Below are positions 972 to 16,986 of a DNA stretch of 64,000 nucleotides, piece after piece. Numbering within the stretch: position 1 is the first letter of the stretch; each line of letters begins with the position of its first letter. A program made the position numbers and the translations under genes. The notes under the pieces were generated by a model. It was not told the origin of the DNA. It ran no database searches and worked only from the letters and a program-made list of their open reading frames with translations. This stretch comes from an uncultured Pseudomonadales bacterium (lineage in GTDB: Bacteria; Pseudomonadota; Gammaproteobacteria; Pseudomonadales; Azotimanducaceae), in contig OY282447.1 of assembly GCA_958296165.1 (NCBI GenBank), positions 806,001 through 870,000 on the forward strand. The letters run 5' to 3'.

Positions 972-1300
972 CTGTTCTCCTTCGGCACGACAAGCCGGCC
1001 GCGGCGGAACCAGTAGTGACACCGGCACGGCATCGCGGTTACATGCACCGACGGCGTGAGGGAAATCGATCCATCCTCGTGTTCGTTCAGGTGCCATCGC
1101 CTCTCCACCTCATCCGCCAAGTCCAAATGGATCACCTGCCGGCAAGCGCGGCGCGGACACACAACGGCGGCATAGAACGGATGCTGGCGACCGCCGATGA
1201 TGTATACCGTCTCGCGCTGAACGTCGTCCGGCAGATCCTCTACCCACTCGGTTCGGTAGGTACGCCGAGCCGCCAACAGATTGAAGATCAGCTTAATCAC
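956..1300 (-). CDS. DUF6527 family protein of ubiquitin-like operon
   Basis: A 114-residue protein beginning at a GTG (1298-1300) that overlaps the stop of the upstream JAB-E1 gene by 8 bases. Near the middle it has a cysteine pair (VVCPRRAC) and later an MPCRCHYWFRRGRL segment, so two Cys-rich stretches could bind one zinc ion. The WVEDLPDD start and the IHLDL and SLTPSVH segments match what I recall of DUF6527, a small family found next to multi-ubiquitin, E2 and JAB-E1 genes. Its biochemical role is unknown to me. A longer form with an upstream ATG at 1348 would lie inside the E1 gene and is less likely. Confidence 0.75.
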   Translation of the reverse strand: MIKLIFNLLAARRTYRTEWVEDLPDDVQRETVYIIGGRQHPFYAAVVCPRRACRQVIHLDLADEVERRWHLNEHEDGSISLTPSVHVTAMPCRCHYWFRRGRLVVPKENRCYAR

Positions 1301-2687
1301 GGTGGACGTTGTTGCGTACCAACACGCTCCGATCGCCCGTTCCCACATGCGGCTTCAGCAGCGGATGAGGGCAAGCGTCGTCCGTATTGTTCTCGTAGCA
1401 GCCATGCACGAGACTAAAACGTTGCGTGGCAAAATCTCGATTGGCGTCGAATCGGTAGGCGTGGATTCGCGCCAGAAAATCGTTGAAGGCCATGCAGGCG
1501 GCTTGCATGTTCACGGACATGACCGCCGGCTGTTCTTCGCCCACTGCCGCCAAGTATCCGGCGATCCGTTGCCGGCGATAGTGCGCTGGATCATGGCGCC
1601 GGGCGTTTTCGGCAGCCACCTGCTCCATGGTGTAGGCAGCGCGGGCAAGCAGGCCAGCACCTTCGGGATGAACATAGTGCGAGACCGCATCCGCCGCTTG
1701 GATTCCTCCTTGCCCATCCGCTTCGAGATACACGCCAACATCAAAGTAGGGTATGAGATGGGCACTAGCGAGGCACTCCAAGTGATAGCGGCCAAAGGCG
1801 GTGTCTACGCAACCGAAGATCACATCGCAATCCACGAGCGCCGCTAGAACTTCAGCAGAATCCGTTTGCGCCTGCAAACAGTTCAGCCGGCAGCCGGTTC
1901 CCATGCGCTCCACGGCCTTCTTCAAGGCGGCTACTTTCGGTCGTCGCTGAAGTGCGTCCTCACGCGATGCGTTGACGATGCGGTTCAGGTTCTTCTCCTC
2001 CACAACGTCGCCGTCCACCAGCACCAGTTCGCCGACGCCATTGCGTGCGAGCAACTCCACGACGATGCTGCCGGTGCCGGAACATCCCACCACGCCAACG
2101 CGCATGGCTCGCAGAAGGGCCAATGTGCCGCTGCCAAAGGTCTGCGCGAGCTTGTTATCGAAGGCACTGGACTCTTGCGCCGACCTTCGAGACTTCCACA
2201 GGCGAATGTCGTCGCCTATCACTGCTACGGTTTCCATCGCGACGAATCGGCCCTGGTCGTCCACCGTGCGCCCAACGATCCGCCCATCCGCGAGCATGAT
2301 CGCTGAACCATTGACGCGCCCGTCGTCGAACCAATTGCAGACGGACGGGAACAGCATCCGGTCGTTCTCGTCGTCCACCGCGGAGAACGCAGCTTGGCCG
2401 TTTGGGTGAGAGTGAATCGTAACTATCGACTGGCCGTTGCGGTCAATCTGGGTAATTCGTTCGGGCGGAAGATGATCGCTGAACGGCCATGTGACGCGCC
2501 GTTGTTGCCGCGACGATCGGTCGTGCGGAAGATGGAGTTGCTCCGCCACCAGCAACCGTTGCGAGCGCCGCCCCGTGCCGCGATTGCAAACCAGAATGGC
2601 TGCGGCTTCCAAGCCATCGCCAGGGAACAGGTAGCTGCGCAAGGAGGCGTGGTGACGCTCCGTCATCACCAAAGCGGTGGCTTTCAT
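1293..2687 (-). CDS. JAB deubiquitinase-like / E1 (ThiF-type) adenylyltransferase fusion
   Basis: A 464-residue two-domain protein. The N-terminal JAB/MPN domain has the full metalloprotease pattern: Glu27, the HSHPN motif (His92, His94), Ser102 and Asp105. The C-terminal half is a ThiF/E1 Rossmann domain with the glycine loop VGVVGCSGTGS (about 197-207), LVDGD (about 223-227) and an E1-like GCVDTAFGR segment. Together these would process a ubiquitin-like protein and activate it with ATP. The start ATG (2685-2687) overlaps the E2 stop as ATGA, so translation is coupled. An ATG 34 codons upstream lies inside the E2 gene and would add a low-complexity Arg-rich leader, so I rejected it. Fusion of JAB and E1 in one chain is known in bacterial multi-ubiquitin operons. 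Confidence 0.9.
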   Translation of the reverse strand: MKATALVMTERHHASLRSYLFPGDGLEAAAILVCNRGTGRRSQRLLVAEQLHLPHDRSSRQQRRVTWPFSDHLPPERITQIDRNGQSIVTIHSHPNGQAAFSAVDDENDRMLFPSVCNWFDDGRVNGSAIMLADGRIVGRTVDDQGRFVAMETVAVIGDDIRLWKSRRSAQESSAFDNKLAQTFGSGTLALLRAMRVGVVGCSGTGSIVVELLARNGVGELVLVDGDVVEEKNLNRIVNASREDALQRRPKVAALKKAVERMGTGCRLNCLQAQTDSAEVLAALVDCDVIFGCVDTAFGRYHLECLASAHLIPYFDVGVYLEADGQGGIQAADAVSHYVHPEGAGLLARAAYTMEQVAAENARRHDPAHYRRQRIAGYLAAVGEEQPAVMSVNMQAACMAFNDFLARIHAYRFDANRDFATQRFSLVHGCYENNTDDACPHPLLKPHVGTGDRSVLVRNNVHRD

Positions 2688-3073
2688 CGCCCGGCCTCCG
2701 CGTGCAGTTCGTTCTTGGCGTACTCGATGTGGGTCGCGACGGTGTCCTCCCCGGGGTGCCACTCGTAGTGGCGTGACCATCGCTGCCAAGTGGTGCCAAA
2801 GTGGCTCTCTTCCGCCAACGCAGCTATGGTGTTGCCGTCTCGCCGTTGTATCGGTGGGTGTAGATAGAACATATCAATCGGCACGCCCGGGTACCCGCTG
2901 GGCACGAGCAGCATCAAGGTGGATTCACGCTCAACGTACCCGTCGGGAATAGGAAAGGGCTGCACGACGAGGCCGAACTTTCCGATTCCTTCCTTCACCT
3001 TGCGCCACGCGCCTGGATGTTGGGCGTTCAGATATTCCGCATCCTCGGGAAGCAGCTCGTAGGGCTCATCCAT
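2684..3073 (-). CDS. E2-like (Prok-E2 family E) protein without cysteine
   Basis: A 129-residue protein with the layout of a prokaryotic UBC/E2 fold: a strand, then LVPSGYPGVPIDMFYLHPPI, then a long C-terminal helix region beginning WQRWSRHYEWHPGEDTV. This matches my recollection of the E2 family that travels with multi-ubiquitin proteins. There is no cysteine anywhere in the sequence, so it cannot form the usual thioester at a catalytic cysteine; the conserved His/Trp segment is the candidate active or binding site. The gene overlaps the multi-UBL gene upstream by 8 bases and the JAB-E1 gene downstream by 3, placing it firmly in one transcript with them. Confidence 0.8.
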   Translation of the reverse strand: MDEPYELLPEDAEYLNAQHPGAWRKVKEGIGKFGLVVQPFPIPDGYVERESTLMLLVPSGYPGVPIDMFYLHPPIQRRDGNTIAALAEESHFGTTWQRWSRHYEWHPGEDTVATHIEYAKNELHAEAGR

Positions 3074-3794
3074 CGCCTTGCTGCGCCTGGCGGCTAACCG
3101 TCTCGAAGCGTTCCACGCCCGGCTTGCAGAGGTCGATCACGTCGTCTGGCTGTATCCGCACCCTCCGTCCGCCGTGCAGCTTCTGGTTCAGCGACCAATC
3201 GTGAGAGTTCTTCCCCACCAAGGCGAGCAACTCGGTGCCCGTTACCGTGGCGGTTTCCAGCGTGTGCTTGGTGCCGTCCACGCGAACTCGGTACTTGTGG
3301 CCTCTGGGCGGACGACGACCATGCTTGCCGCACTCCTCCAAATCGACCTCGCTGACCCCTTCCGGGGACGGGGGAACGACGAAATAGACATCCGTTTCCT
3401 GCACCACGACCGTCACGTCGTCTGGTATTTCCACGTCTACTTCGTCCACAGACTCCACGAACAGGCGGCCGTGCGGGAACTCAGTGTCGTTCTCTTTCAG
3501 GGCGAGGCCCGTTGCCTTGGCGTACTGGACTTCAAGGGTCTGACCATTGAGCGTTGGGCGAATCGCGTTCGCTAGGCGTGGGTTGTCGCTTGTCGCAACG
3601 TCGCCTCTGACAAGCCGTTCGCCGCCACGCAGCAAGATGTGATCGGAAGACGAGAGCGGCGTTGCCGCTTGGTTCGTGCGATCAAGGAACAGCAGGCGGC
3701 CGTCTTCGCCCGCCAGAGCGCACAGTTCATCTACGCGGCGCAGCCCTAGCTGAACAGCGACGCGCCGGCCATCGACTTCGATATCACCTTCCAC
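3066..3794 (-). CDS. Multi-ubiquitin (multiple UBL domain) protein
   Basis: About 242 residues holding tandem ubiquitin-like folds. The clearest is the last (residues about 166-233), which starts KYRVRVDGTKHTLE and ends IQPDDVIDLCKPGVERFETV, the hallmark of the multiubiquitin family. A first repeat is seen at about 3-62 (VDGRRVAVQL to HILLRGGERLVRGD) and a more diverged one at about 72-142. The C-terminus is QQGDG, not the diglycine of classical ubiquitin. I chose the GTG at 3792-3794 because a GGAGG ribosome site lies 5 bases before it; a GTG 25 codons upstream is possible but lacks one. It is the first gene of the ubiquitin-like operon, and the predicted substrate or modifier of the E1 and E2 proteins encoded just downstream. 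Confidence 0.85.
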   Translation of the reverse strand: MEGDIEVDGRRVAVQLGLRRVDELCALAGEDGRLLFLDRTNQAATPLSSSDHILLRGGERLVRGDVATSDNPRLANAIRPTLNGQTLEVQYAKATGLALKENDTEFPHGRLFVESVDEVDVEIPDDVTVVVQETDVYFVVPPSPEGVSEVDLEECGKHGRRPPRGHKYRVRVDGTKHTLETATVTGTELLALVGKNSHDWSLNQKLHGGRRVRIQPDDVIDLCKPGVERFETVSRQAQQGDG

Positions 3795-3962
3795 CTGCGC
3801 CTCCGACCGTCGTTCTACCGAGCGCCGACTGTCACGTCCGAAAAGCGTACCACAAGCAGCTTCTGGCACCCGCTACGGGTGCGCGAACCGCCGAACTTGC
3901 GGGTCCGACGACGACCGCACAAGCTGCACACGACAGTCAATGTCGCCCGAGCCCCGAAGCCC

Positions 3963-5969: not shown

Positions 5970-8917
5970 TCATGCCGAATCTCCTGCATCCGCTTCGTCC
6001 AGCCAGAAATCCAACTGATTGGGCGGATCGACTTCGTCCTCATAGGCCAGCCGGGAGAGGTTGTAGAGCGCCTCGAAATCGTTGCTGGACGCGGCGGCCT
6101 CGCTTTGCAGATCCACGCCGGTGAATCGGCGCGACACCGGCAGCACTTCCAACACCGCCTCGAACGCCCGGAATAGGCGGGCGTCTTGATCCATGCCGGT
6201 ATCCGTCAGCAAGTCGCGCGCCGCCGCTAGCGAGCGGGTGCGCGAGACGTTGGCGGCATGATGCAACGTGTCGATCAGGCCCCGGCTGCCATCTACCGGG
6301 CCGAGGGCACCCTTCGCCGCCCTTGTGGCGCTATCCCAAAGCCGGAAATCGCTGCCGCGCTTCTCGCCGAGCCGCTTGGCCACTTGCGCATCCATATCCA
6401 CGCCAACGGCGCGGGCGAGACGCAGGGCCTCGTCGTAGGCGAAGATGGGGGCGCGGAAGGCGTCCCACGCCAGCACGAAGAACGCGGTGACGGCATCCAA
6501 ATCCTCTTTCGCCTTCTTGTGCGTGAGCTGCTCCAAGCGCCAGTTCTTCACTTCGCGGCGGGCGGCATCGAGGGCATCTTCGGGCGTTGCCGCATAGGGG
6601 TCCCACTCCTCTTCGAGTAACTCCCGCTGGCGGCGGCGACCTGGGTTGGGGCGCTCTCTGGGCGTGCCACGGGTGAGGGGCCAGTGGCGCGAGAACTCCT
6701 CAAGCGCCGGGCCGAAGGATGCGAGGTACAAATCCACGCCGGTGATGCCAGCCTTCTGGAACTCCTCCACGCGCTTACTCACGGCCTGTGCGACGCGGGG
6801 TTCCACGTCTTCCCAATAGGTGACGGAATCGCGCACTTCGGTGGCTTCTTCTCGTGGGCGTGGACGGCAGGCGAGAAACACCGTGCTGTTAGCCGCCGCC
6901 TTGTTGCGAATGTGCAGGCTGCCGCCGGCTTCGGTGTTGATGGGCCACGACGCGGTGATGACGAAACCGGCCTCGATCAATCCTTTGGTGAGCGCGTCCC
7001 ACGCGCCGGTAGCCTTGTGGGTGAACATCAGCGTCATGATGCCGTTGGCTTTGAGCACCCGCCGGCACTCGGCGAAGATGGCGGCCATCCGTTCTTGGTA
7101 GTCGCGGCCAGCCAGGGCCCGGGCACCTTTCTCACCGGCGAATCGCGCGGGATTGGCCACGGCTTCGTTCTCCTTGTCCGTGAGCTGGCGGCGGAACAGT
7201 TCGGGGAACACGTGCCCAGCGGTGCGCTTCAGCCAGACGTAGAAGAAATCCGACAGCTCGGCGTACATCACGTTGTCGTAGTAGGGCGGATCCATGACGA
7301 CGACATCGATGCTGGCGTTGGGGATGTGATCTAGGCTGTCTGCAGACTTGCAGGTGATGGTGACCGGGGGCGGTTCGCTTGGCGCTTCGGTGGCTTGGTC
7401 GATTAGGTCTGGGCGCTGTCCTTTGGGGTTGATGAGTTCGACGAGTTCTTTGATGCACTTAGCGGTCTTTTCGATTGCCCAGTCGTAGCCGACGCCGGTA
7501 ACTAGCGGTGCCATCTCCGCGTATGACCACACGAAGGCGAAGTCGTGCCTGTCGAAGATAGAGCGCACCCTTCCCGTGGTGCTGTCCCAGCGGCCAGCGC
7601 GGTTGTTGTAGTTCAACAGGGTGTCCAACGTGATTGCCAGATAACCGTAGGCGGCCTGCCGTACTTCGGTCAGTTCGCCCGCGGCACGGTCCGCTTCGAG
7701 CATCTGCCGGAACACCTCCACGCTGGTGCCGTGGCACAGCAGTTGGCGGGGCGAGAACAGGTCGCGCCACATGGACATGCCGTAGCGCTTGGGTTCTGTG
7801 GTCTTGTTGCCTTCCGGATGCGCTCGCTAGGCACGAAGTCGAACGCCCCCCACTCTGGCAGCTTTTCATCCAACGCGGCCTGAATCTGGGCACTGTTGTC
7901 GTCCTCCGGCCGCGGTGCCCGATAGCCGCGAACCCACTTTTCACGCTTGCGCCCGGTCTTCGTCTTGACGATCACCCGCTGCTTGTAGACCACTGCGTAC
8001 AGCTGCTCGCCCATGCGCCCGGCTTGCGCCTGCGCCTTGATCTCGTCGCCCTTGATCTGCCGCCGGCAATCCGAATACGGGCACAAGCCATCCCCACGCG
8101 CCACTGTGCCTTCAGACTGCTGCTCGACAGCTTCGACAATCTCGAACGCGCAAGCCCGCCCTTCGGTTCCCGGACCACCGCCAAGCTGCGGTACCAGCCG
8201 AACCCCCAACCCACCAGATGCCAGCCGCCAATTCGGCGACAACGGCACAAGACCGGCGCAATAGGGACAGGCGATGGTGCGGGCCCATAGGTAGCCTGAA
8301 ATCAGGACGTCTTCAGGCTCCGCCGGAAAGACACCTTCATACCCCGACTCAGCTCGGCTAACGAAGGCCATTGCCAATTCCTTGAACTCGTCAAGCACGG
8401 CGAGGCCGTGTCGCACAGGCCAATCAAAGGTTGCGTACTCAAGCAGGGCGGCCACAGCGTTCAGGTCGTTTGCCTCCGCCTGAAGCCCGAGACGAACTGC
8501 CTCGAACGGCACGCTACCACCACCGGCAGTTGGGTCCAGTACGACAGCACTTCCGACCGTGTTAGCCGCAACCCAATCTCTTTCTGACTCCGAGGGCGAG
8601 TAGCCGAAGGCGCGTGCATATCCAAAACCTCCGTCGGCCAGACGTTCCCCATTTCGGCTAGCGGCCGCAATACGCTCTTTGGCGACCACGGGGTCGCCGA
8701 GGATACCGAGGACTGAGAGAAACCGTTCCCGGTCCACATCCGAGCGCAACAGCGACGCCAGAATCGCTGCCCGACAGGCCACCAAGGGCCGCCTTGCCCA
8801 CCAGACGTGCAGGTAGTAGGTCGCTGGCAGTGCTGTCATGGACCCTCGTTCGCGCATGCTCTCAATGCCAATCTCTGCGATGGGTAACCAACGCTCGACT
8901 AGGCGGGTATCCGGCAC
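5970..8917 (-). pseudogene. DUF1156 DNA methyltransferase (COG1743-like), one frameshift
   Basis: The N-terminal part starts at a GTG (8915-8917) with a GAGGAG site 7 bases before it. It shows the DUF1156 start ([25 protein letters not shown]), a SAM-binding loop [14 protein letters not shown], and zinc-ribbon cysteines ([14 protein letters not shown]). At about 7814-7817 the frame breaks inside ATCCGGAAGG. Adding one C restores [20 protein letters not shown], which runs into the downstream frame carrying the catalytic VVMDPPYYDNVMYAELSDF motif. Repaired, the protein would be about 982 residues, a normal size for this family of N6-adenine/N4-cytosine methyltransferases. It may be a true inactivating mutation, a phase-variable tract or a consensus error. 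Such enzymes usually sit beside a DUF499 ATPase; here that gene is 8.7 kb away. Confidence 0.85.
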
Positions 8918-9093: not shown

Positions 9094-10065
9094 GTGAAGG
9101 TGGCGGGCCAAACGGCGATGCGCGTTGAGAAGGGAACAGTGTCTGCGAGCGATCATCAGTCGAGTTTGCCACTCGCCAACGCAGGACCGCTAGCGCTGAA
9201 TGCCGTGTCGCCCTTCGCCGAGATGGGTGCGTACGAAGCCATCTGGGCCGAGGAGAACGTGTCCTTCAAGACGCTCTCGGAGCGCTTCGCCGCACATCCG
9301 AACAACATTCTGTCGGACTTCGTCGCCCCCGCCAAATGTGACGAGTACGCACATGCTGCCCGCGCCAGCCTAGCCCAAGCAGGCGTCCATCGATTCGGCA
9401 TCCGTCTGAACGGTGCTGCGGAATACCCCGCCAAGCTCCGCGACGCCGCCCATCCTGTTGCACTGCTGTACTACGTCGGCAATTGGGATTTGGCGTGGTC
9501 GCCTGCTGTGGCCGTCGTCGGCACACGCCAGGCCACGGCCGGTGGGCTGGCTCGAACACGGAAGTTGGTGAAGTCGCTGGTGCAGGACGATTTCACGGTG
9601 GTGTCCGGTCTGGCGTCCGGAATCGACACCACCGCACACGAAACTGCGATCGCGTGCGACGGTAGGACGATTGCAGTGATCGGAACCCCTCTCTCGGCAT
9701 GCTACCCAACGGCCAATGAGCCGCTTCAGCGTGCAATCGGCGAGAACTACCTTGTTGTGAGCCAAGTGCCGGTGAAACGATACGAGATGCAGAGCTTCCG
9801 CGGCAATCGCTACTTCCTCCCCGAGCGCAACGCCACGATGTCCGCACTCACCGACGCCACCGTGATAGTGGAGGCCGGCGAAACGTCCGGAACGCTCATC
9901 CAAGCGATGGCAGCGCTCGAACAGGGCAGAAAGTTGTTCGTGCTGGACAGCTGCTTCGGCAAGGGCCTGCGCTGGCCAGAACGGTTGGAGGCCAAAGGCG
10001 CATTGCGCGTGAAGGAATATGGCGAGATCGCAGAGCAGCTTGCCGAGGCACTTAACGAAGGTTGA
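9094..10065 (+). CDS. DprA/Smf-like (SLOG fold) protein
   Basis: Up to 323 residues. The middle and C-terminal part is a DprA Rossmann-like domain: VAVVGTRQATAGGLA, VVSGLASGIDTTAHETA, GRTIAVIGTPL, then RNATMSALTDATVIVEAGETSGTLIQA. DprA proteins bind nucleotides or single-stranded DNA and load RecA, but this one lies in a defence island, lacks the usual C-terminal winged helix, and is followed by a phosphoribosyltransferase gene. Stand-alone DprA-like proteins of this kind occur in defence loci, where a nucleotide-sensing role has been proposed. The start is unclear: GTG 9094, ATG 9118 or GTG 9139; the last has the best ribosome site (GAAGGGA). Confidence 0.8.
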   Translation: MKVAGQTAMRVEKGTVSASDHQSSLPLANAGPLALNAVSPFAEMGAYEAIWAEENVSFKTLSERFAAHPNNILSDFVAPAKCDEYAHAARASLAQAGVHRFGIRLNGAAEYPAKLRDAAHPVALLYYVGNWDLAWSPAVAVVGTRQATAGGLARTRKLVKSLVQDDFTVVSGLASGIDTTAHETAIACDGRTIAVIGTPLSACYPTANEPLQRAIGENYLVVSQVPVKRYEMQSFRGNRYFLPERNATMSALTDATVIVEAGETSGTLIQAMAALEQGRKLFVLDSCFGKGLRWPERLEAKGALRVKEYGEIAEQLAEALNEG

Positions 10066-10673
10066 TGCACTAGCGCCGGACCACTGGCATCTGGAAGGGT
10101 CCGACGAATGCTACTTCCTCGGCGAATACACAGCTGGTGAGGGCTATCAGTTCAGTCCGACGAATCAGCTCATCTTCAACCTCAAGAAGAGCCCAGATCG
10201 CCGCGGGCGAGCGGAGTGGCACTACAAAGAAAACGCCATTCAGGAGGTCGCCAAGGCCTTGCGAGCGGCAATCAAGCAGGAGTATCTGGACACGATCACG
10301 TTCATGCCGATACCGCCCTCGAAGGTGAAGGCGGATCCGCTTTATGACGACCGGATGACGCGAGTGCTAGAGGCCATAAGGCCAGAGCCACCCTTGGACA
10401 TCCGAGAGTTGATCGTGCAGACGGCGAGTACGCAGGCCGCACACGAAAGCGAACATCGGCCCAGCCCGTCAGAAATGGAGGCACGCTACGCAGTGGATGT
10501 CGTGCTCGCCTACCCACCACACATATCATCTTCATCGTTGATGACATGCTGACAACCCGGGCCCACTTCCGGGCGGCCAAGTCACTGCTAACCAGCCAGT
10601 TCCCCGGAACAACAGTGGTGGGCGTTTCATGGCACGCCGGGTCCTACCCTCACGTCTCAAGGCACCCCTTTGA
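10019..10673 (+). pseudogene. Phosphoribosyltransferase-like gene with two frameshifts
   Basis: The first frame (from ATG 10019, overlapping the DprA gene by 47 bases) encodes an ISSFKNxxR-like N-terminal region with ITFMPIPPSKVKADPLYDDR. It then breaks at the CCC run 10513-10515. Adding one C leads into THIIFIVDDMLTTRAHFRAA, the PRPP-binding loop of type I phosphoribosyltransferases. A second break at the TTT run 10625-10627 is repaired by one T, giving VVGVFMARRVLPSRLKAPL and a stop at 10673, only 14 bases from the end of the convergent nitrilase gene. The repaired length is about 218 residues. The neat end after two repairs makes this reading convincing. It belongs with the DprA-like protein; the enzyme's substrate is unknown. 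Confidence 0.75.
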
Positions 10674-10687
10674 TCCTCTTGCGCGGC

Positions 10688-12439
10688 TTACCTCCTGCGA
10701 CGGTATCCTGGCGGCGGTGCTTTGAACGTCCGCGGCTTTTGCATTTTCTGCTTTCGACCCTGCCACTCTCTTTTGGCCGCATCGACCGCCGTCTTGACTC
10801 CTTTGATCTGTTCATCTAGCAGGCCCTTGACAGGTATTTCGACATCCGCCAGGAGGAGAAGGCCCGACCCTCGGAGCCTCGCAAGTTCACGTGCGTGGCT
10901 TCCCTTGGGCGTCCAGACGAATGATCCACCGTACAGCCCATGGTTCACCGCAAGAACATTGACATAGCTTTCGTAAGCTCGCACCCACGTCAAGGCGTCA
11001 AACAGCTCTACATCCTTGTTGAACGCGACTGTGAACAGGTGCAGCATCTCGCCACGGAAGACCCTCCAAGGCTCCGCGTCGATCAGGTCCGCACAAATTG
11101 CAATCGAAAAGTCGCCCCACCTCCGATGCACGAACCGATACCACCTTCTTCCCTTTAGAAGATGAAACTTGATCTTGGATTGTTTGGTTAACGCTCGAGC
11201 TAGCCCTTCCTCAATGTGAGCAGGAACGGGCTTGCGTACACGGAACCATCGCACGGTCGGTGGTCCGGGGGTGTCATGGCCCAACGGCACTATCAGCTCT
11301 GCCTCGTTCACTATCCAGCGTTGTCTAGTCTTCGGCAGTCTGACACGCCCTGGATAGACAGCCTGCAACTCCCGCCAAAAGAGGCCTGCTAGCGCGGCAA
11401 CGCCTGTCTTGGAGACCAGCTGCCGTAACGTGGCCACCTCATTTTGAGGTATAGATGCTTCTGGTAGCAATACGAGAGCAGGCTGGTTGTCAGATGCTCT
11501 GTTCTGGAACGCCCCTGCTACCTGCTGCATTACAGCGTGTGCCTCGTGCGCCGCGACAGCTGGAAAGCTATGTGTGACCTGCGAATACCATCTCGATACT
11601 TGGGCGATGCGCACATTCAGGGAACCCGACAATTTCTCGTCGTCAAGCTCAAGATCATCTCGCAGTTTCGGCGACCCTCGGAAAGGGCCTGCGGACCGAA
11701 CAACTTCAAGGTAGTGACCTTCTTGAAGCAGTACATCGATGCGCTCCGCGACGAAGTCTTGAAAACTAAAACTACGCGATAGCACACCGGCGAACTCCGA
11801 GAGCGTATTGACCGCCATCGGGACGGTGGGAAAAATCGCCCACTGAATGACTCTATCCACAGTCTTCCAAGTCTCTTCCGACAAATGAATTCGAGACCGC
11901 CACGCCCATCTGTCCTGGAATGGAACACCGGACAAGCCACTACGATGTAGCGAATCAAGGATGCGTTCTCCACCATCCAACGCAGTGAGGAACAGCAAGA
12001 CGTCGCAATAGAGAACATAGCTCGCAGCAAGGGCACGGAGCCGGGATGGTGACCGTAGCCGAGGCGTCGGAGGTTTCAACCCATTGACTAGCGGGATGTA
12101 GTACGCGGGATGTGGTGGCACATCCCAGCCCGTCGACCTAGTTACTACCGGGGTCTTTTTGCGCCGATCCTCGTCTGCTCCCGGATCTGAGTAGCCAAGC
12201 TGTAGCCGCCGGCCTGCCCCGATGACCTCCTTGCAGTTCTCTAGCGTCCATACCAAGGGGCCTTTGTTAATGCTCCAATCACTAGGGCGTTGCTTGTCTC
12301 GGGCCGCCAACAAGAGTGCAGCAGCAACGCGCGTGGGCAAGCCAACCGCGGGCACTTCGTAACAACGGATTCGCCAGTCGTCAACTTTGCGCGACTTCGA
12401 GACGCCCCACAATAGCTTGTGGAGCGTTACGGAGGCCAC
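10688..12439 (-). CDS. Nitrilase/C-N hydrolase-like protein paired with reverse transcriptase
   Basis: About 583 residues from a GTG (12437-12439) that overlaps the stop of the reverse transcriptase gene by 13 bases. The C-terminal 280 residues have the three nitrilase landmarks in order: LVLLPEASIP (catalytic Glu about 327), KGRRWYRF (Lys about 429) and FSIAICADLIDAEPWR (catalytic Cys about 449). The N-terminal 300 residues match no domain I know. In anti-phage reverse transcriptases of the UG1/DRT1 type a nitrilase domain is fused to the C-terminus of the RT; here it is a separate, coupled gene. All three catalytic residues are present, so activity is plausible, but the substrate is unknown. 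Confidence 0.8.
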   Translation of the reverse strand: MASVTLHKLLWGVSKSRKVDDWRIRCYEVPAVGLPTRVAAALLLAARDKQRPSDWSINKGPLVWTLENCKEVIGAGRRLQLGYSDPGADEDRRKKTPVVTRSTGWDVPPHPAYYIPLVNGLKPPTPRLRSPSRLRALAASYVLYCDVLLFLTALDGGERILDSLHRSGLSGVPFQDRWAWRSRIHLSEETWKTVDRVIQWAIFPTVPMAVNTLSEFAGVLSRSFSFQDFVAERIDVLLQEGHYLEVVRSAGPFRGSPKLRDDLELDDEKLSGSLNVRIAQVSRWYSQVTHSFPAVAAHEAHAVMQQVAGAFQNRASDNQPALVLLPEASIPQNEVATLRQLVSKTGVAALAGLFWRELQAVYPGRVRLPKTRQRWIVNEAELIVPLGHDTPGPPTVRWFRVRKPVPAHIEEGLARALTKQSKIKFHLLKGRRWYRFVHRRWGDFSIAICADLIDAEPWRVFRGEMLHLFTVAFNKDVELFDALTWVRAYESYVNVLAVNHGLYGGSFVWTPKGSHARELARLRGSGLLLLADVEIPVKGLLDEQIKGVKTAVDAAKREWQGRKQKMQKPRTFKAPPPGYRRRR

Positions 12440-15054
12440 GGGAGTCCCCGACTCAGAAAGACTTTGCGGGCACGCCCGTAATCCCAGAGCGCTAGCGGGT
12501 CGTCGATAACTCGCGACCTCGCATCGCAAACTGCTTTCAGAACTGCTTCGTCGGAGAGTCGCCACTCGCAATGGAAATGCCCCGCGACAGCAAGGGCATA
12601 AGAGGGATTTTCGTCTACATCGCGTATGGTTGAGTTACGGCCCTCAGGAAAAAGGACTTCTTCAACGCCCCCGTTTCCGCTAGCGAGCAACAGCTGGCCA
12701 ACGAGTGACCGTCGCAAGGAGCCGGGCCTGCTCCGTGGAGTCGCGAGCCGTCCGTTCCGCGCCAAAATTGCGCTGGTCGCGGGAGCGCTCTCCACTATTC
12801 CTTCTGGCGCGGCAATGTGGTTGCCACTCGACTTACTGCGACGCCACTCGTCAGCCGCGACCCGTTTCGTCACCGCTGCAAGGCAGGCGGCGACCAGCAG
12901 ATCCAGTTCCCACGGTGGGAGAACCACGGTGTGGGGATCATCGCCATACAGAAGTCCGGTCCATTTATCGACATCACCTAGAAACTGCGCGACATGCCTA
13001 TGCAGACCTTCCGGAACAGCACGCGTAGCCCAATGGTGGGGAGATGCACCGGTGCGCAGGGACTGAAGCAGTCCATGGGTGCCATGGTGTGGATCATGCC
13101 TCTCATGGTGTGAATAGAGTAGGCGGATGACATTCGCCAACGCCTGCCAGAAGGCTGCGCGGTGAAACGACAGATAGGGTCCGCGCCAATCAATACCGGT
13201 GCTCCGATGAGACGAACCTACTCTCTCTTCTGGCCAGTTCGATATCCAAGAGTCCTCTCCAGATGTGGCGACGCGTCGCAGAAGGCTAGTCAGCCAAGCA
13301 CTAGCTTCCTTGTCATCCTCGGCATCGCGACTCTCCGGATCGATTACGCGGCGAGATGCGGCGCGAACGACCGCACCCCAAACGGCGAACTTCCAAGGTG
13401 TCTCGGCAAATACTGCCGCAACGGAGTGACGTATTTCAGATAGCTCGCGTCGCGCTTGGCTCGGATCTGTCGAAAGCCACGCACCGGATAGTCGATTGAC
13501 CGCAAATGTACGGCGTGTGTCTGCCCGAACTTGCTCATCGGCAATGTCGAATCGTGCTAGATCGTGAAGTTGTACCTGCCGATCCCTCGCTCCCTGTCCA
13601 AAGCGATCCGCGAGAGTGTCCCTTCCGATCTCACTCAGGCGCTCGACAAGCGTGGTGACGAACGGGCCGACGTCACGCGGCCCGATGGACGCTCTCTTCA
13701 ACTCGTTGTGGAGCTGTTCGTCAACATTGTGCCATGACTGACCCAGGGAGGCAGATTTCGGTCCTGGCTCCAGTTCTTTGCACTCTGCGCAGATGCTCCA
13801 GCCGTTTGCCTTCAGGCAGCTCTGCACGGCCTCTTGAACCTGAGGCGGATTGACCTTCGACAAGTTGATGTGCAAGTTCGACTTTGAGTTCGGCTTGATG
13901 GGGCAGCGACCCTCCGTACCCTCTACCGCTCCCCACACCACATCGATCAGTCGAAATAGGCCCTCAGATGACCGAGCCATTAGGTACATGTCGTCCGCGA
14001 ACCTTACGACAGCCCCACGGTGTACCCCTCCAGCGTCCGCTAGATAGTCCAACACAGCGCTGTCAGCGCCGTGCATGACGACGTTGAAGAGCAGACCCGA
14101 CACGGCCAACCCTGTTGGCAGGCCCTTGTTCTTCGGTGGCAACTTTGCCCTTGCGTGGAAGGGCTTCCAAGATTCAATAGGGACATCGTCGCCTACGACG
14201 CTCACTCGCATGAGGGCGTTCACAAGGCCTTCGGAGAGAGCCCTTCGCACCTCTCGGTCCTGTAGCTCAGACGAGATTTCCTGTGGATAGCCGTCGAGCA
14301 GATCGGACGTCACGTACGGCACATCAACGAGATCACTAAGCTCTTTGGACAGGTCTGCTAGGCGCACCGAAGGATAAGCTAGTTGGATGTCAAGGGATGC
14401 CCAATAGGCTCTGCGATCCCCTTCGTCGCGCTGATCAATCCACCACCGATCTTGCACCCACTCTGGCAAGGAGCTGGCGTCATAGTTGTCTGGATGATGC
14501 ACTCGACCGGCATAGTTCTCCTCTCGAAGAGCGGCCTTGGTCATGCGCGAGACTGTCCAGTTCGCAACCCGACGAAACATGCCGTGGGACCTGGCGTAAG
14601 GCAAGTACGTTCGATGATTGAGGAAGGGGTACCCGCGTTGCTCCCACCGTGGCCTATCGAGGCGCGTGTTCCAAGCGACGGGTCGATACAGCCGATTCCC
14701 GAAGACGAATGGAAGGAACTCGTTGTCCAGTAGGGGTCCAAGGAGAACCAGATAGGCCATGAAAGCGACTTGGTCTTTGACGGTGGGCATCACGTAGTGG
14801 CGTAGGCAAGCGCCTCGTTTCGGATACGGTAGCTGTCGCCAAGCACTCGGTCGCCACTTACCGGCACGGAGTTTTTCGGCTAGATCCCGAACGGCTGCCT
14901 CTGGATGGAGACGCCATTGAGAGAGCTCCGGTTGCGGCGCGAGATTGCCAGAGCGGTACCACGCGTCGACACGCAGCCATGCGGCCCAAACAACAAGCGG
15001 GTGGGCCAGTGTCTCGGCAGCTGACGTGTTCGAGCGGGCCACCATATTAGACAC
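12427..15054 (-). CDS. Reverse transcriptase of the defence (DRT, UG1-like) class
   Basis: An 875-residue protein with reverse-transcriptase motifs: a finger region YPKRGACLRHYVMPTVKDQV (77-96), motif A SLDIQLAYPSV (Asp222), the template-grip loop KGLPTGLAVSGLLFN (about 310-324) and the catalytic RFADDMYLMA (Asp354, Asp355). All polymerase acidic residues are intact. There is no group II intron maturase domain, and no retron-type ncRNA is evident beside it. The C-terminal 450 residues are mainly helical and unassigned. The overlapping downstream nitrilase gene points to the class of RT-nitrilase anti-phage systems. The start is GTG 15054 or ATG 15045. It follows the AAA/PD-(D/E)XK gene by 117 bases and may share its transcript. 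Confidence 0.88.
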   Translation of the reverse strand: MSNMVARSNTSAAETLAHPLVVWAAWLRVDAWYRSGNLAPQPELSQWRLHPEAAVRDLAEKLRAGKWRPSAWRQLPYPKRGACLRHYVMPTVKDQVAFMAYLVLLGPLLDNEFLPFVFGNRLYRPVAWNTRLDRPRWEQRGYPFLNHRTYLPYARSHGMFRRVANWTVSRMTKAALREENYAGRVHHPDNYDASSLPEWVQDRWWIDQRDEGDRRAYWASLDIQLAYPSVRLADLSKELSDLVDVPYVTSDLLDGYPQEISSELQDREVRRALSEGLVNALMRVSVVGDDVPIESWKPFHARAKLPPKNKGLPTGLAVSGLLFNVVMHGADSAVLDYLADAGGVHRGAVVRFADDMYLMARSSEGLFRLIDVVWGAVEGTEGRCPIKPNSKSNLHINLSKVNPPQVQEAVQSCLKANGWSICAECKELEPGPKSASLGQSWHNVDEQLHNELKRASIGPRDVGPFVTTLVERLSEIGRDTLADRFGQGARDRQVQLHDLARFDIADEQVRADTRRTFAVNRLSGAWLSTDPSQARRELSEIRHSVAAVFAETPWKFAVWGAVVRAASRRVIDPESRDAEDDKEASAWLTSLLRRVATSGEDSWISNWPEERVGSSHRSTGIDWRGPYLSFHRAAFWQALANVIRLLYSHHERHDPHHGTHGLLQSLRTGASPHHWATRAVPEGLHRHVAQFLGDVDKWTGLLYGDDPHTVVLPPWELDLLVAACLAAVTKRVAADEWRRSKSSGNHIAAPEGIVESAPATSAILARNGRLATPRSRPGSLRRSLVGQLLLASGNGGVEEVLFPEGRNSTIRDVDENPSYALAVAGHFHCEWRLSDEAVLKAVCDARSRVIDDPLALWDYGRARKVFLSRGLPWPP

Positions 15055-15171: not shown

Positions 15172-16986
15172 TTACTCGGTGAGTTCGCACCGCACCAGTT
15201 CCCAGCCATGAAACACCACGACTAACCCGCTGAATCGCACGAACGGATATTGCCGTTCTAAACGCGCATCCGCCACATATCGCCGCAACTGTCCTTCCGC
15301 GTCCTGGACCAACGCTCGCACGGTGGCATCGCTCGCCCCCTCCCCACGCTTGATGTACTTCAACTCAACCAAGTACCCATACCGAAGCTCCGGGAACTGC
15401 GCAACGAGCGGTTCCAGCGAGATGTCGGCAAACCCCTTGTTGAGCTCCACCTCCGTACGCAGCAGGAAGTGCCGCGAAACACCCAAGTAGGCAGCGAGGA
15501 AGCCCTGGATGATCTTCTCCCCGTCCAAGTAGTCACGAACACTGGTTTGCGCGGCGATCGCATCCCGCAGAAAGTCGAACACCGGCCGCCACTCGCCGTC
15601 GAGCGCCATTCGCCGCAGTAGGCCAGCGAAGGCGTGCATGTCCACGGAGAGCACGCCAACGTCGTCGTAGGCATCCCGCAAATGGCCGTACAGGAGGCGC
15701 CGCACCGTCTGGTTGGGGATGCCTAGCTGAACCTCGCCGGCCTTCGCCGTGCGGATGCTCAGCAGGCCGAAGTAGTGCAGCAACGAGAGGAAGTTGTCGC
15801 GCTGGTTCAAACGCTCTAGAGGGAAGCTGGTCTGGATGTCGGCATGCACTTCGCCTTCGCCGATCACTTGCCGCAGCAAGTCGAAGTTGCCGTTTAGCCG
15901 CACCGAGCCTGCCGTTTCGCCCCCGCGAGTGGTGTCCGCCGCACGCCCGCTGTCTCCCATCTGCCGGCTGACGGTCAGCAGGTGGCGCAGCTTGCCGTAG
16001 TCGATGCGCACGTTCACGTCGATCAGGTCGTCCGGCATGGGCTTGTTCGGCAGGATGGCGTTCAGGAAGTAGAGCACCATGTCGGTGTTGTACACGGTCT
16101 CGTCCGCGTTCGTGGCGAAACGGTAGCCGTCGTACCATTCGCGCATCACATCAAGAGCAACGTTCGCATCTATGCTCAAGGCACCGGCGCGTCCATAGGT
16201 CTCCAGCAGGCCCCGCACTTCGTCCTCGGTGAAGCCCAATATGGCGTTGAACTCCTTGCGCAGGCTGATGTTGCTGCCGATGTTGAAGCCGCTGGTTACG
16301 TCGTCCAAGGTGACGGGCGATACGCCGGTGATGAACAATCGCTCCAAGCCGCCGCCGCTGCGCCCCGCGCCGCCTTTCAGCGCCGCGAAGAAGTTGCGGT
16401 AGAAGCCGCTGCCGTGTGTTAGTTTCTGGTACGCCTCAGCACCGTGGTGGGCCAGTATGGTGTTGGCGAAGTTGTCGTATTCGTCAATGAGCACGAATAG
16501 GCGAGTGCCATGCCGGCGCGCATCGCGGAACAGTGCGTTCAGCTTGCCGGACGCCGAGGGATGATCTAAGACGTGGCGCGTCGCCTTAGTAGAGAAGAGG
16601 TCCGAGTTGCGCTCCATTGCCTCCTCGATCTCCAAGTGGCAGTAGTCCTCAAACTCCCGCTCCAAGGTCTCCGGGGCATCGTGTACCACCGAGAAGTCAA
16701 AGCGCAAAACCGCATAGCTGTGGCGGTTGTCCGTGGGGTTGCAGCCGATGTACGTGCCGCCGAAGACCTGCTCGAACTCACCTGCCCACTTGCGGTCGTA
16801 GTAGTTCTCCAGCAAGGAAAGCCAGCAGGATTTCCCGAAGCGCCGTGGCCGGATTAGGAAAGTGAAGCGCTCGTTTTCCAGCGGGGGGATGAAGCGCGTC
16901 TTATCCACATAAAGGCGGCCTTCCAGCCGCATGGCGCGGAAATCGGCCCAGCCGTAGGGAATGAGGGGATAGGAGGTGGTGGACAT
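15172..16986 (-). CDS. AAA-ATPase_like / PD-(D/E)XK nuclease family protein
   Basis: A 604-residue protein of the family with an N-terminal AAA-ATPase_like domain and a C-terminal PDDEXK_9 domain. The start MSTTSYPLIPYGWADF and VDKTRFI are typical; Walker A is RPRRFGKSCWLSLLE (about 46-60) and Walker B is LFVLIDEYDNF (about 163-173). Near the C-terminus NKGFADISL and YLVELKYIKRG give the D...ExK nuclease core. These proteins are common in variable genome regions of bacteria and are thought to be selfish or defensive; their target is unknown. It lies 37 bases after the DUF7680-like gene and 117 before the reverse transcriptase, all on one strand. Confidence 0.88.
   Translation of the reverse strand: MSTTSYPLIPYGWADFRAMRLEGRLYVDKTRFIPPLENERFTFLIRPRRFGKSCWLSLLENYYDRKWAGEFEQVFGGTYIGCNPTDNRHSYAVLRFDFSVVHDAPETLEREFEDYCHLEIEEAMERNSDLFSTKATRHVLDHPSASGKLNALFRDARRHGTRLFVLIDEYDNFANTILAHHGAEAYQKLTHGSGFYRNFFAALKGGAGRSGGGLERLFITGVSPVTLDDVTSGFNIGSNISLRKEFNAILGFTEDEVRGLLETYGRAGALSIDANVALDVMREWYDGYRFATNADETVYNTDMVLYFLNAILPNKPMPDDLIDVNVRIDYGKLRHLLTVSRQMGDSGRAADTTRGGETAGSVRLNGNFDLLRQVIGEGEVHADIQTSFPLERLNQRDNFLSLLHYFGLLSIRTAKAGEVQLGIPNQTVRRLLYGHLRDAYDDVGVLSVDMHAFAGLLRRMALDGEWRPVFDFLRDAIAAQTSVRDYLDGEKIIQGFLAAYLGVSRHFLLRTEVELNKGFADISLEPLVAQFPELRYGYLVELKYIKRGEGASDATVRALVQDAEGQLRRYVADARLERQYPFVRFSGLVVVFHGWELVRCELTE

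What the first reader, a model, noticed from the sequence alone, without database searches (positions are those of the whole stretch)
10688..15054. Reverse transcriptase and nitrilase encoded as two overlapping genes
Seen: an 875-residue RT with intact motif A and FADD catalytic residues, followed with a 13-base overlap by a 583-residue protein carrying the Glu-Lys-Cys nitrilase triad. Known: UG1 (DRT1) anti-phage RTs carry the nitrilase domain fused in one chain. Inference: this is a split version of that system, or a separate related class; the nitrilase also has 300 residues of unknown N-terminal sequence.
Basis: partly seen in the sequence, partly recalled or inferred. Interest (0 to 1): 0.82.

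Follow-up and report, generated by a model that had tools for sequence, protein, structure and literature searches.

The report
Broken fused reverse transcriptase–nitrilase defence gene
Two overlapping bacterial genes for a reverse transcriptase and a nitrilase look like the two halves of one fused anti-phage gene whose reading frame was broken, in a stretch where two neighbouring defence genes are also broken; it belongs to a known kind of defence system but to a little-sampled branch of it.

Summary
In detail: an 875-residue RT (12427..15054, minus; RFADD) overlaps by 13 bases a 583-residue protein (10688..12439) ending in a nitrilase with E327/K403/E410/C449.

A naturally split system is the weaker reading. 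The one close relative found (L039, 50% identical over 583 residues; its contig starts inside the RT's C-terminus) reads in one frame across the junction. Of 31 further loci of that scan, 27 have the nitrilase in an open frame of at least 1167 residues. The cut falls inside the region between RT and nitrilase, whereas two-gene UG6 systems part at the nitrilase border (3 of 3 loci). ShosT and an HmaB-like methylase nearby are also frame-broken.

Best reading: a class-3 UG/DRT gene, on its own branch nearest UG6, fused by ancestry, with its frame broken here by decay or sequence error. Abortive-infection defence by RT-nitrilase is known for DRT1; RT plus separate nitrilase is catalogued for UG6. 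A working two-chain version is not excluded (about 0.15).

The parts
12427..15054 (-). Reverse transcriptase chain, 875 aa: RT core (about 1-420), a loop with S456 (candidate priming serine, unproven), then helical region to the C-terminus
10688..12439 (-). Second chain, 583 aa from GTG 12439: helical N-terminal 270 residues, then nitrilase domain 275-583 with E327/K403/E410/C449 and C-terminal lid motif FKAPPPGY (K573)
12427..12439 (-). Overlap of the two ORFs, the junction where the reading frame changes by -1; in L039 the homologous place is one continuous frame
15172..16986 (-). Neighbour upstream: AAA-ATPase_like + PD-(D/E)XK protein, 604 aa, one frame; not shown to belong to the system
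10019..10725 (+). Neighbour downstream (convergent): ShosT-like gene in two frames (profile 3-163 in the ORF ending 10552, 172-214 in the frame 10348-10725), i.e. frame-broken
9094..10065 (+). ShosA (DprA-like) gene, one frame
5970..8917 (-). HmaB/DUF1156-like methylase in two frames (ORFs 7670-8917 and 5970-7778 match successive parts of the same profiles), i.e. frame-broken

Best explanation
The pair is the two frame-separated parts of what was one class-3 UG/DRT gene: RT, then a long helical region, then a C-terminal nitrilase. It is a lineage nearest to UG6 and distinct from DRT1 and UG5. By analogy with DRT1 (inferred, not shown here) the intact protein would make template-free, protein-primed DNA, assemble through its nitrilase domains, and on infection free the nitrilase to stop the infected cell. 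Here the frame is broken in a short linker inside the helical region, most likely by mutation in a decaying defence stretch or by a sequence error, so this copy is probably not making the fused protein. Shown: the domains, the catalytic residues, the relative that is one frame at the junction, the broken neighbours. Inferred: the mechanism, the loss of function, and the choice between decay and error.
For: Closest relative L039 is one frame across the junction; its first 80 residues match the last 70 of our RT with score 43, above all of 1000 shuffles (max 39; against the whole RT 40 of 1000 shuffles reach it), and its frame then runs into TLHKLLWG, where our second chain begins after MASV. 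Of the other 31 loci of that scan 27 have the nitrilase in an open frame of >=1167 aa; in the order sample 10 of 11 other hits lie in frames of >=1013 aa; 2 of 2 hits in the 15 other same-genus genomes lie in frames of 1250 and 1275 aa; the 3 other strong hits of the class sample lie in frames of 954-1078 aa. The cut is inside the region between the domains: from R-x-D-T after the RT to the nitrilase start the two window pieces sum to 366+274=640 residues, against 621+about 8 in UG6, where all but about 8 lie in the RT chain. Neighbours ShosT and HmaB are also frame-broken.
Against: Only one close relative, and its contig begins inside the RT C-terminus, so its whole gene was not seen and no RT was found elsewhere in its genome. 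The break lies in a short non-conserved linker; the second ORF has a GTG four codons before the first conserved residues with a GGGG Shine-Dalgarno-like stretch before it (-5.7, as strong or stronger in only 14% of 222 start-like codons of the locus; the RT's own start has -2.1); both parts keep their catalytic residues: that fits a tolerated split too. UG6 has separate nitrilases and PADLOC has an RT_UG5_small model beside the fused UG5 one, so parting is possible in this class. My frame-switch count does not show the window to be clearly worse than the rest of the genome (1 strong switch in 64 kb against 2 in 400 kb).
Confidence: 0.75

Rival explanations
1. A working two-chain system: a fused ancestor underwent fission, and the RT chain and the helical-nitrilase chain, translated from overlapping genes, assemble without a covalent link and defend as DRT1 does.
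For: Break in a short linker; GTG start with a Shine-Dalgarno-like stretch; catalytic residues kept and the lid lysine that DRT1 needs; separate nitrilase genes are a layout found in UG6.
Against: The cut is inside the region before the nitrilase rather than at its border; the relative is one frame there; two neighbours are broken too; no second example of this split in the searches made, which see samples only.
Confidence: 0.15
2. An ancestral two-gene system of the UG6 type (RT gene plus separate RT-associated nitrilase gene).
For: RT nearest UG6 in the tree (90/92) and by PADLOC profile; nitrilase outside DRT1 together with UG5 and UG6.
Against: In 3 of 3 UG6 loci the second gene is 298-299 aa, nitrilase only, with 1-4 bases between the genes; here it carries about 270 more residues that lie between RT and nitrilase, and L039 is one frame. 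Long branches meet in the RT tree.
Confidence: 0.04
3. Programmed -1 frameshifting at the overlap makes both a short RT and a fused RT-nitrilase.
For: The second ORF is in the -1 frame of the first and stays open for about 200 bases upstream of the RT stop.
Against: No X_XXY_YYZ slippery heptamer in the RT frame in the last 270 bases before the RT stop; L039 needs no shift.
Confidence: 0.03

Closest known systems
DRT1 (UG1), solved structure 9yfd
   Same: RT, helical region, C-terminal nitrilase; our RT aligns to a DRT1 profile over 12-526 (1.8e-11); catalytic Glu/Lys/Glu/Cys kept; K573 aligns with the DRT1 lid lysine K1219
   Different: The 34 DRT1 proteins collected (picked for length) are one chain of 1222-1330 aa; both trees put ours outside DRT1; ours totals 1458 aa in two frames
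UG6 RT + separate RT-associated nitrilase (PADLOC RT_UG6 / RTasNitrilase)
   Same: Best PADLOC profile for the RT (2.8e-22) and sister in the RT tree; nitrilase in a second gene downstream
   Different: UG6 parts at the nitrilase border (RT 1070-1127 aa + 298-299 aa nitrilase, 3 of 3 loci); ours is cut inside the region before it and L039 is one frame there; the lid lysine is not kept in the 3 UG6 nitrilases
UG5 RT-nitrilase (PADLOC RT_UG5-nitrilase)
   Same: Nitrilase domain of the same class (1.9e-25)
   Different: The 5 UG5 proteins used (picked for length) are one chain of 942-1073 aa; our RT matches their profile only over 83 columns (1e-4)

Membership tests
class-3 UG/DRT (RT with nitrilase) | RT domain with intact catalytic aspartates | tested here: met
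class-3 UG/DRT (RT with nitrilase) | nitrilase domain with catalytic Glu-Lys-Cys, fused or adjacent | tested here: met
class-3 UG/DRT (RT with nitrilase) | phage protection; [quoted passage not shown]
   protection shown for DRT1 and template-free synthesis for DRT1 and DRT5 in PMC13275509, not for this gene
DRT1 (UG1) | placed inside the DRT1 clade | tested here: not met
   RT tree DRT1 85/81 without window_RT; nitrilase tree DRT1 100/99 without window
DRT1 (UG1) | single RT-nitrilase chain | tested here: not met
   two frames here; relative L039 is one frame at the junction
DRT1 (UG1) | priming serine S402 | tested here: inconclusive
   S456 in RASIGPRDV lies near the equivalent place, alignment loose, read by eye
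UG6 | RT groups with UG6 | tested here: inconclusive
   90/92 support but long branches meet; hhalign 1.6e-7 over 312-525; L039's RT not available
UG6 | separate, nitrilase-only second gene | tested here: not met
   second chain has about 270 extra residues. That this defines UG6 rests on 3 loci from a 295-genome sample of one family

The most novel reading that the evidence does not exclude
A fourth RT-nitrilase lineage, apart from DRT1, UG5 and UG6, in which one member works as two separately translated chains that meet inside the helical region, so that RT-driven assembly and nitrilase activation run through a non-covalent contact.
Probability: 0.13. Interest if true: 0.55.

Novelty: new variant of a known kind. 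Interest (0 to 1): 0.32.

Why it matters
The split itself is probably not a design feature. What remains is a little-sampled branch of RT-nitrilase defence (window and L039) in which fused and two-gene layouts lie close together in the trees. That makes it a useful place to ask when RT and nitrilase were joined or parted, and whether the DRT1 mechanism needs one chain. If the two chains did work, they would let the DNA-synthesis and effector halves be made and tested apart.

Tried and rejected
Close relatives in plasmids and phages by tblastn: no match for the RT in either or for the second chain in plasmids; the second chain was not searched in phages. Viral contigs with the single proteins: no relative; with A2 two DRT1 in one frame each; with A3 none. 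Own relatives with the RT: of 38 genomes 2 matched, the own one and one at 1.5e-4 that by eye is a group II intron type RT. RT N-terminal part elsewhere in L039's genome: none found. In the class sample (369 genomes, 8 with a match, own included) four weak hits in frames of 504-548 aa were not followed up. Wide samples around L039's genome gave only it and 3 frames of 954-1078 aa (of 274 genomes) or 1013-1335 aa (of 144).

Homology of the second chain's N-terminal 285 residues to UG6 or DRT1 by profile comparison is not significant (0.049 over 19 columns; 0.11 at a non-colinear place), so its place in the helical region rests on length, order, L039 and predicted helices. AlphaFold2 models were of low confidence (mean pLDDT 49 and 45); only the nitrilase fold (amidase 3.5e-9) and the RT fold (6e-5) come out of PDB searches, and 9yfd is not among the 50 rows listed. 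Rfam and tRNA scans of the window: nothing, so no catalogued RNA partner.

Selection: the DRT1 and UG5 sets used for profiles and trees were picked by ORF length (900 aa or more), so their being fused is by construction and is not counted as evidence; 18 of 34 DRT1 rows went into the trees. L120's UG6 RT was used without its first 57 residues. Four of ten candidate outgroup loci gave no usable RT ORF and were dropped.

Sequence-quality control: 20 stretches of 20 kb (400 kb of the 5.07 Mb genome) gave 8 same-strand frame switches with a stop 30 or more bases past the switch; 6 have a start within 18 bases of that stop, as in ordinary overlaps, and 2 have the stop over 150 bases past. The window gave 3, the strongest being HmaB (146 bases past). 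So by this count the window is at most mildly enriched. The method scored the nitrilase part and ShosT as non-coding, so it cannot count those two breaks, and it does not decide between decay and error.

Literature: listings show no paper on this lineage or on an RT-nitrilase cut in the helical region. The main UG/Abi paper (10.1093/nar/gkac467) and a 2021 review are not held, so absence from print is not claimed. Passages only were seen of PMC8934634, PMC12632851, PMC13213688 and PMC12489045.

Full report
What is there. On the minus strand an RT ORF (12427..15054, 875 aa, GTG) is followed with a 13-base overlap by an ORF read from GTG 12439 to 10688 (583 aa; the open frame also allows a TTG start at 12571). 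The RT carries SLDIQLAYPS (220) and RFADD (351), matches RVT_1 at 2e-7 and PADLOC RT_UG6 at 2.8e-22, Drt1a only at 2.4e-4. The second chain matches no Pfam family at E<=0.1 but RTasNitrilase at 3.3e-37, RT_UG5-nitrilase at 1.9e-25 and Drt1a at 5.2e-13, all within residues 195-581, and the solved DRT1 chain 9yfd at 1.4e-5. The catalytic Glu, Lys, second Glu and Cys (E327, K403, E410, C449) are invariant in both nine-row alignments of nitrilase domains. The C-terminal lid lysine (K573) is invariant in the first, which holds UG5 and DRT1, but not in the three UG6 rows of the second. In DRT1 the lid residue K1219 is needed for defence (PMC13275509, section 8 read); numbered back from the C-terminus of the close homologue L037 and by the alignment, it corresponds to K573.

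Is it one gene or two? The genome-contig scan with A2 returned 32 loci. L039 (a gammaproteobacterial MAG) is by far the closest: 55% identity in the tblastn segment, 50% over the 583-residue chain. Its ORF is open at the contig start and runs, without a stop, from a stretch like the end of our RT (..RVEAFRADPFRLQEYADARRVIL..) into PTLHKLLWG, where our second chain begins after MASV. The RT-like stretch scores 43 against the last 70 residues of our RT, more than all of 1000 shuffles; against the whole RT 40 of 1000 shuffles do as well, so the match is carried by its place. Of the remaining 31 loci, 27 have the nitrilase match in an open frame of at least 1167 aa (one, L064, open at a contig end); L040 (862 aa, near a contig start), L042 (a lone 293-aa nitrilase), L051 (991 aa) and L060 (broken into three ORFs) do not. 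Two of the 27 (L041, L044) were checked against profiles and match Drt1a over its length. In the order sample (293 genomes) 12 had hits, the own genome included; 10 of the other 11 lie in frames of 1013-1343 aa and one is the lone nitrilase again. Two of 15 other genomes of the genus have hits, in frames of 1250 and 1275 aa. In the class sample the three other strong hits lie in frames of 954-1078 aa; four weak ones were not followed.

Where is the cut? Past the RT core our chain has VRADTRRTFAVNRL (509), aligned with a like motif in DRT1 and UG6. From its R to the nitrilase start the window has 366 residues in the RT chain and 274 in the second chain, 640 together; UG6 has 621 in the RT chain and about 8 in the nitrilase chain. 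In UG6 the genes part at the nitrilase border; here the cut is deep inside the region before it. Low-confidence models show helices on both sides of the cut. Direct profile similarity of the second chain's N-terminus to UG6 or DRT1 is not significant. PADLOC's RTasNitrilase profile, matched from its first positions, covers DRT1 residues from about 750-784 to the end, so that model includes part of the helical region and separate proteins with such an N-terminus may have been used to build it; ours matches only from position 141. I could not see which proteins that model was built from, and if they are separate genes they would be a precedent for a cut like this one.

Two-gene RT plus nitrilase is known. 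Of a sample of 295 genomes of the family of Paenibacillus macquariensis, 3 have a UG6 hit at E<=1e-8. All three have the RT gene followed, after 1-4 bases, by a 298-299-aa gene matching RTasNitrilase at 5.6e-52 to 1.8e-55. A 2021 paper's table already lists a UG6 RT with a nitrilase neighbour (PMC8934634, passages seen). So the layout 'RT and nitrilase as two genes' is not new.

Where does it belong? RT tree of 33 rows: window_RT with UG6 (90/92), outside DRT1 (85/81) and UG5 (100/100); the window's branch is long and the program warns that long branches meet. Nitrilase tree of 29 rows, unrooted: window + L039 are one group (99/98), lying with UG5 and UG6 and apart from DRT1 (100/99). Profile comparison of the RT alone: DRT1 1.8e-11, UG6 1.6e-7, UG5 1e-4; the profiles differ in depth (34, 3 and 5 rows), so these are not a ranking.

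Surroundings. The stretch is a defence island: ShosA and ShosT, HmaB and HmaC/DUF499, an AAA-ATPase_like + PDDEXK protein. ShosT is in two frames (profile 3-163 in one, 172-214 in another). The HmaB-like methylase is in two frames, with coding signal changing at about 7816 and the first ORF's stop 146 bases later. Three frame changes in neighbouring defence genes are more easily explained by decay or local error than by three designs. A control sample of 400 kb of the same genome gave 2 comparable strong switches; the window gave 1 by that method, which misses weakly coding genes, the nitrilase part and ShosT among them. So the clustering rests on the profile matches, not on that count.

How it would work if whole (by analogy; nothing tested). 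In DRT1 the RT makes template-free DNA primed on a serine, the nitrilase domains form the tetramer core, DNA adducts drive a dormant filament, and infection is met by abortive infection that needs both active sites (PMC13275509, abstract and sections 4, 5, 7, 8 read, other passages seen). DRT5 proteins also make template-free DNA. Our RT has a serine (S456) near the place of S402 in a loose alignment read by eye; that is a lead only, and the paper says S402 is not kept in other class-3 DRTs. With the frame broken, the RT chain would lack the second part of the helical region and the nitrilase; the second chain might still be started at its GTG.

Verdict. The sequence observation is right. The most likely meaning is a fused class-3 gene of a UG6-near lineage with a broken frame, not a naturally split DRT1. 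DRT1 and UG6 are each failed on a tested feature, so it is filed only as class-3 UG/DRT, sub-lineage unnamed. That class 3 joins RTs with nitrilase or phosphohydrolase is from PMC13275509 (section 4) and a passage of PMC12489045; UG1 = DRT1 and the UG6 and UG5 labels follow PADLOC profile names and recall. No call names the organism.

Noticed in passing
window 1293-3869 (-): Multi-ubiquitin protein (PF14452, 7e-13), a 129-aa ORF, and a ThiF + JAB protein: looks like a bacterial ubiquitin-like modification operon next to the defence island.
   Followed up: partly
window 5970-8917 (-): HmaB/DUF1156-like methylase broken into two frames.
   Followed up: partly
window 10019-10725 (+): ShosT broken into two frames beside an unbroken ShosA.
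   Followed up: partly
L042 7821-8702; L087 6761-7642: A lone DRT1-type nitrilase of 293 aa, with no RT ORF seen beside it, among what by eye look like polysaccharide-synthesis genes in Paraperlucidibaca; it nests in the DRT1 clade.
   Followed up: no
L044 640-4503: A DRT1 protein on a contig binned as Crenarchaeota; in the RT tree next to one from the window's own order, so transfer or a binning error.
   Followed up: no
L060 4910-8708: A DRT1 gene of Sporosarcina thermotolerans lies in three successive ORFs, so broken copies occur elsewhere too.
   Followed up: no
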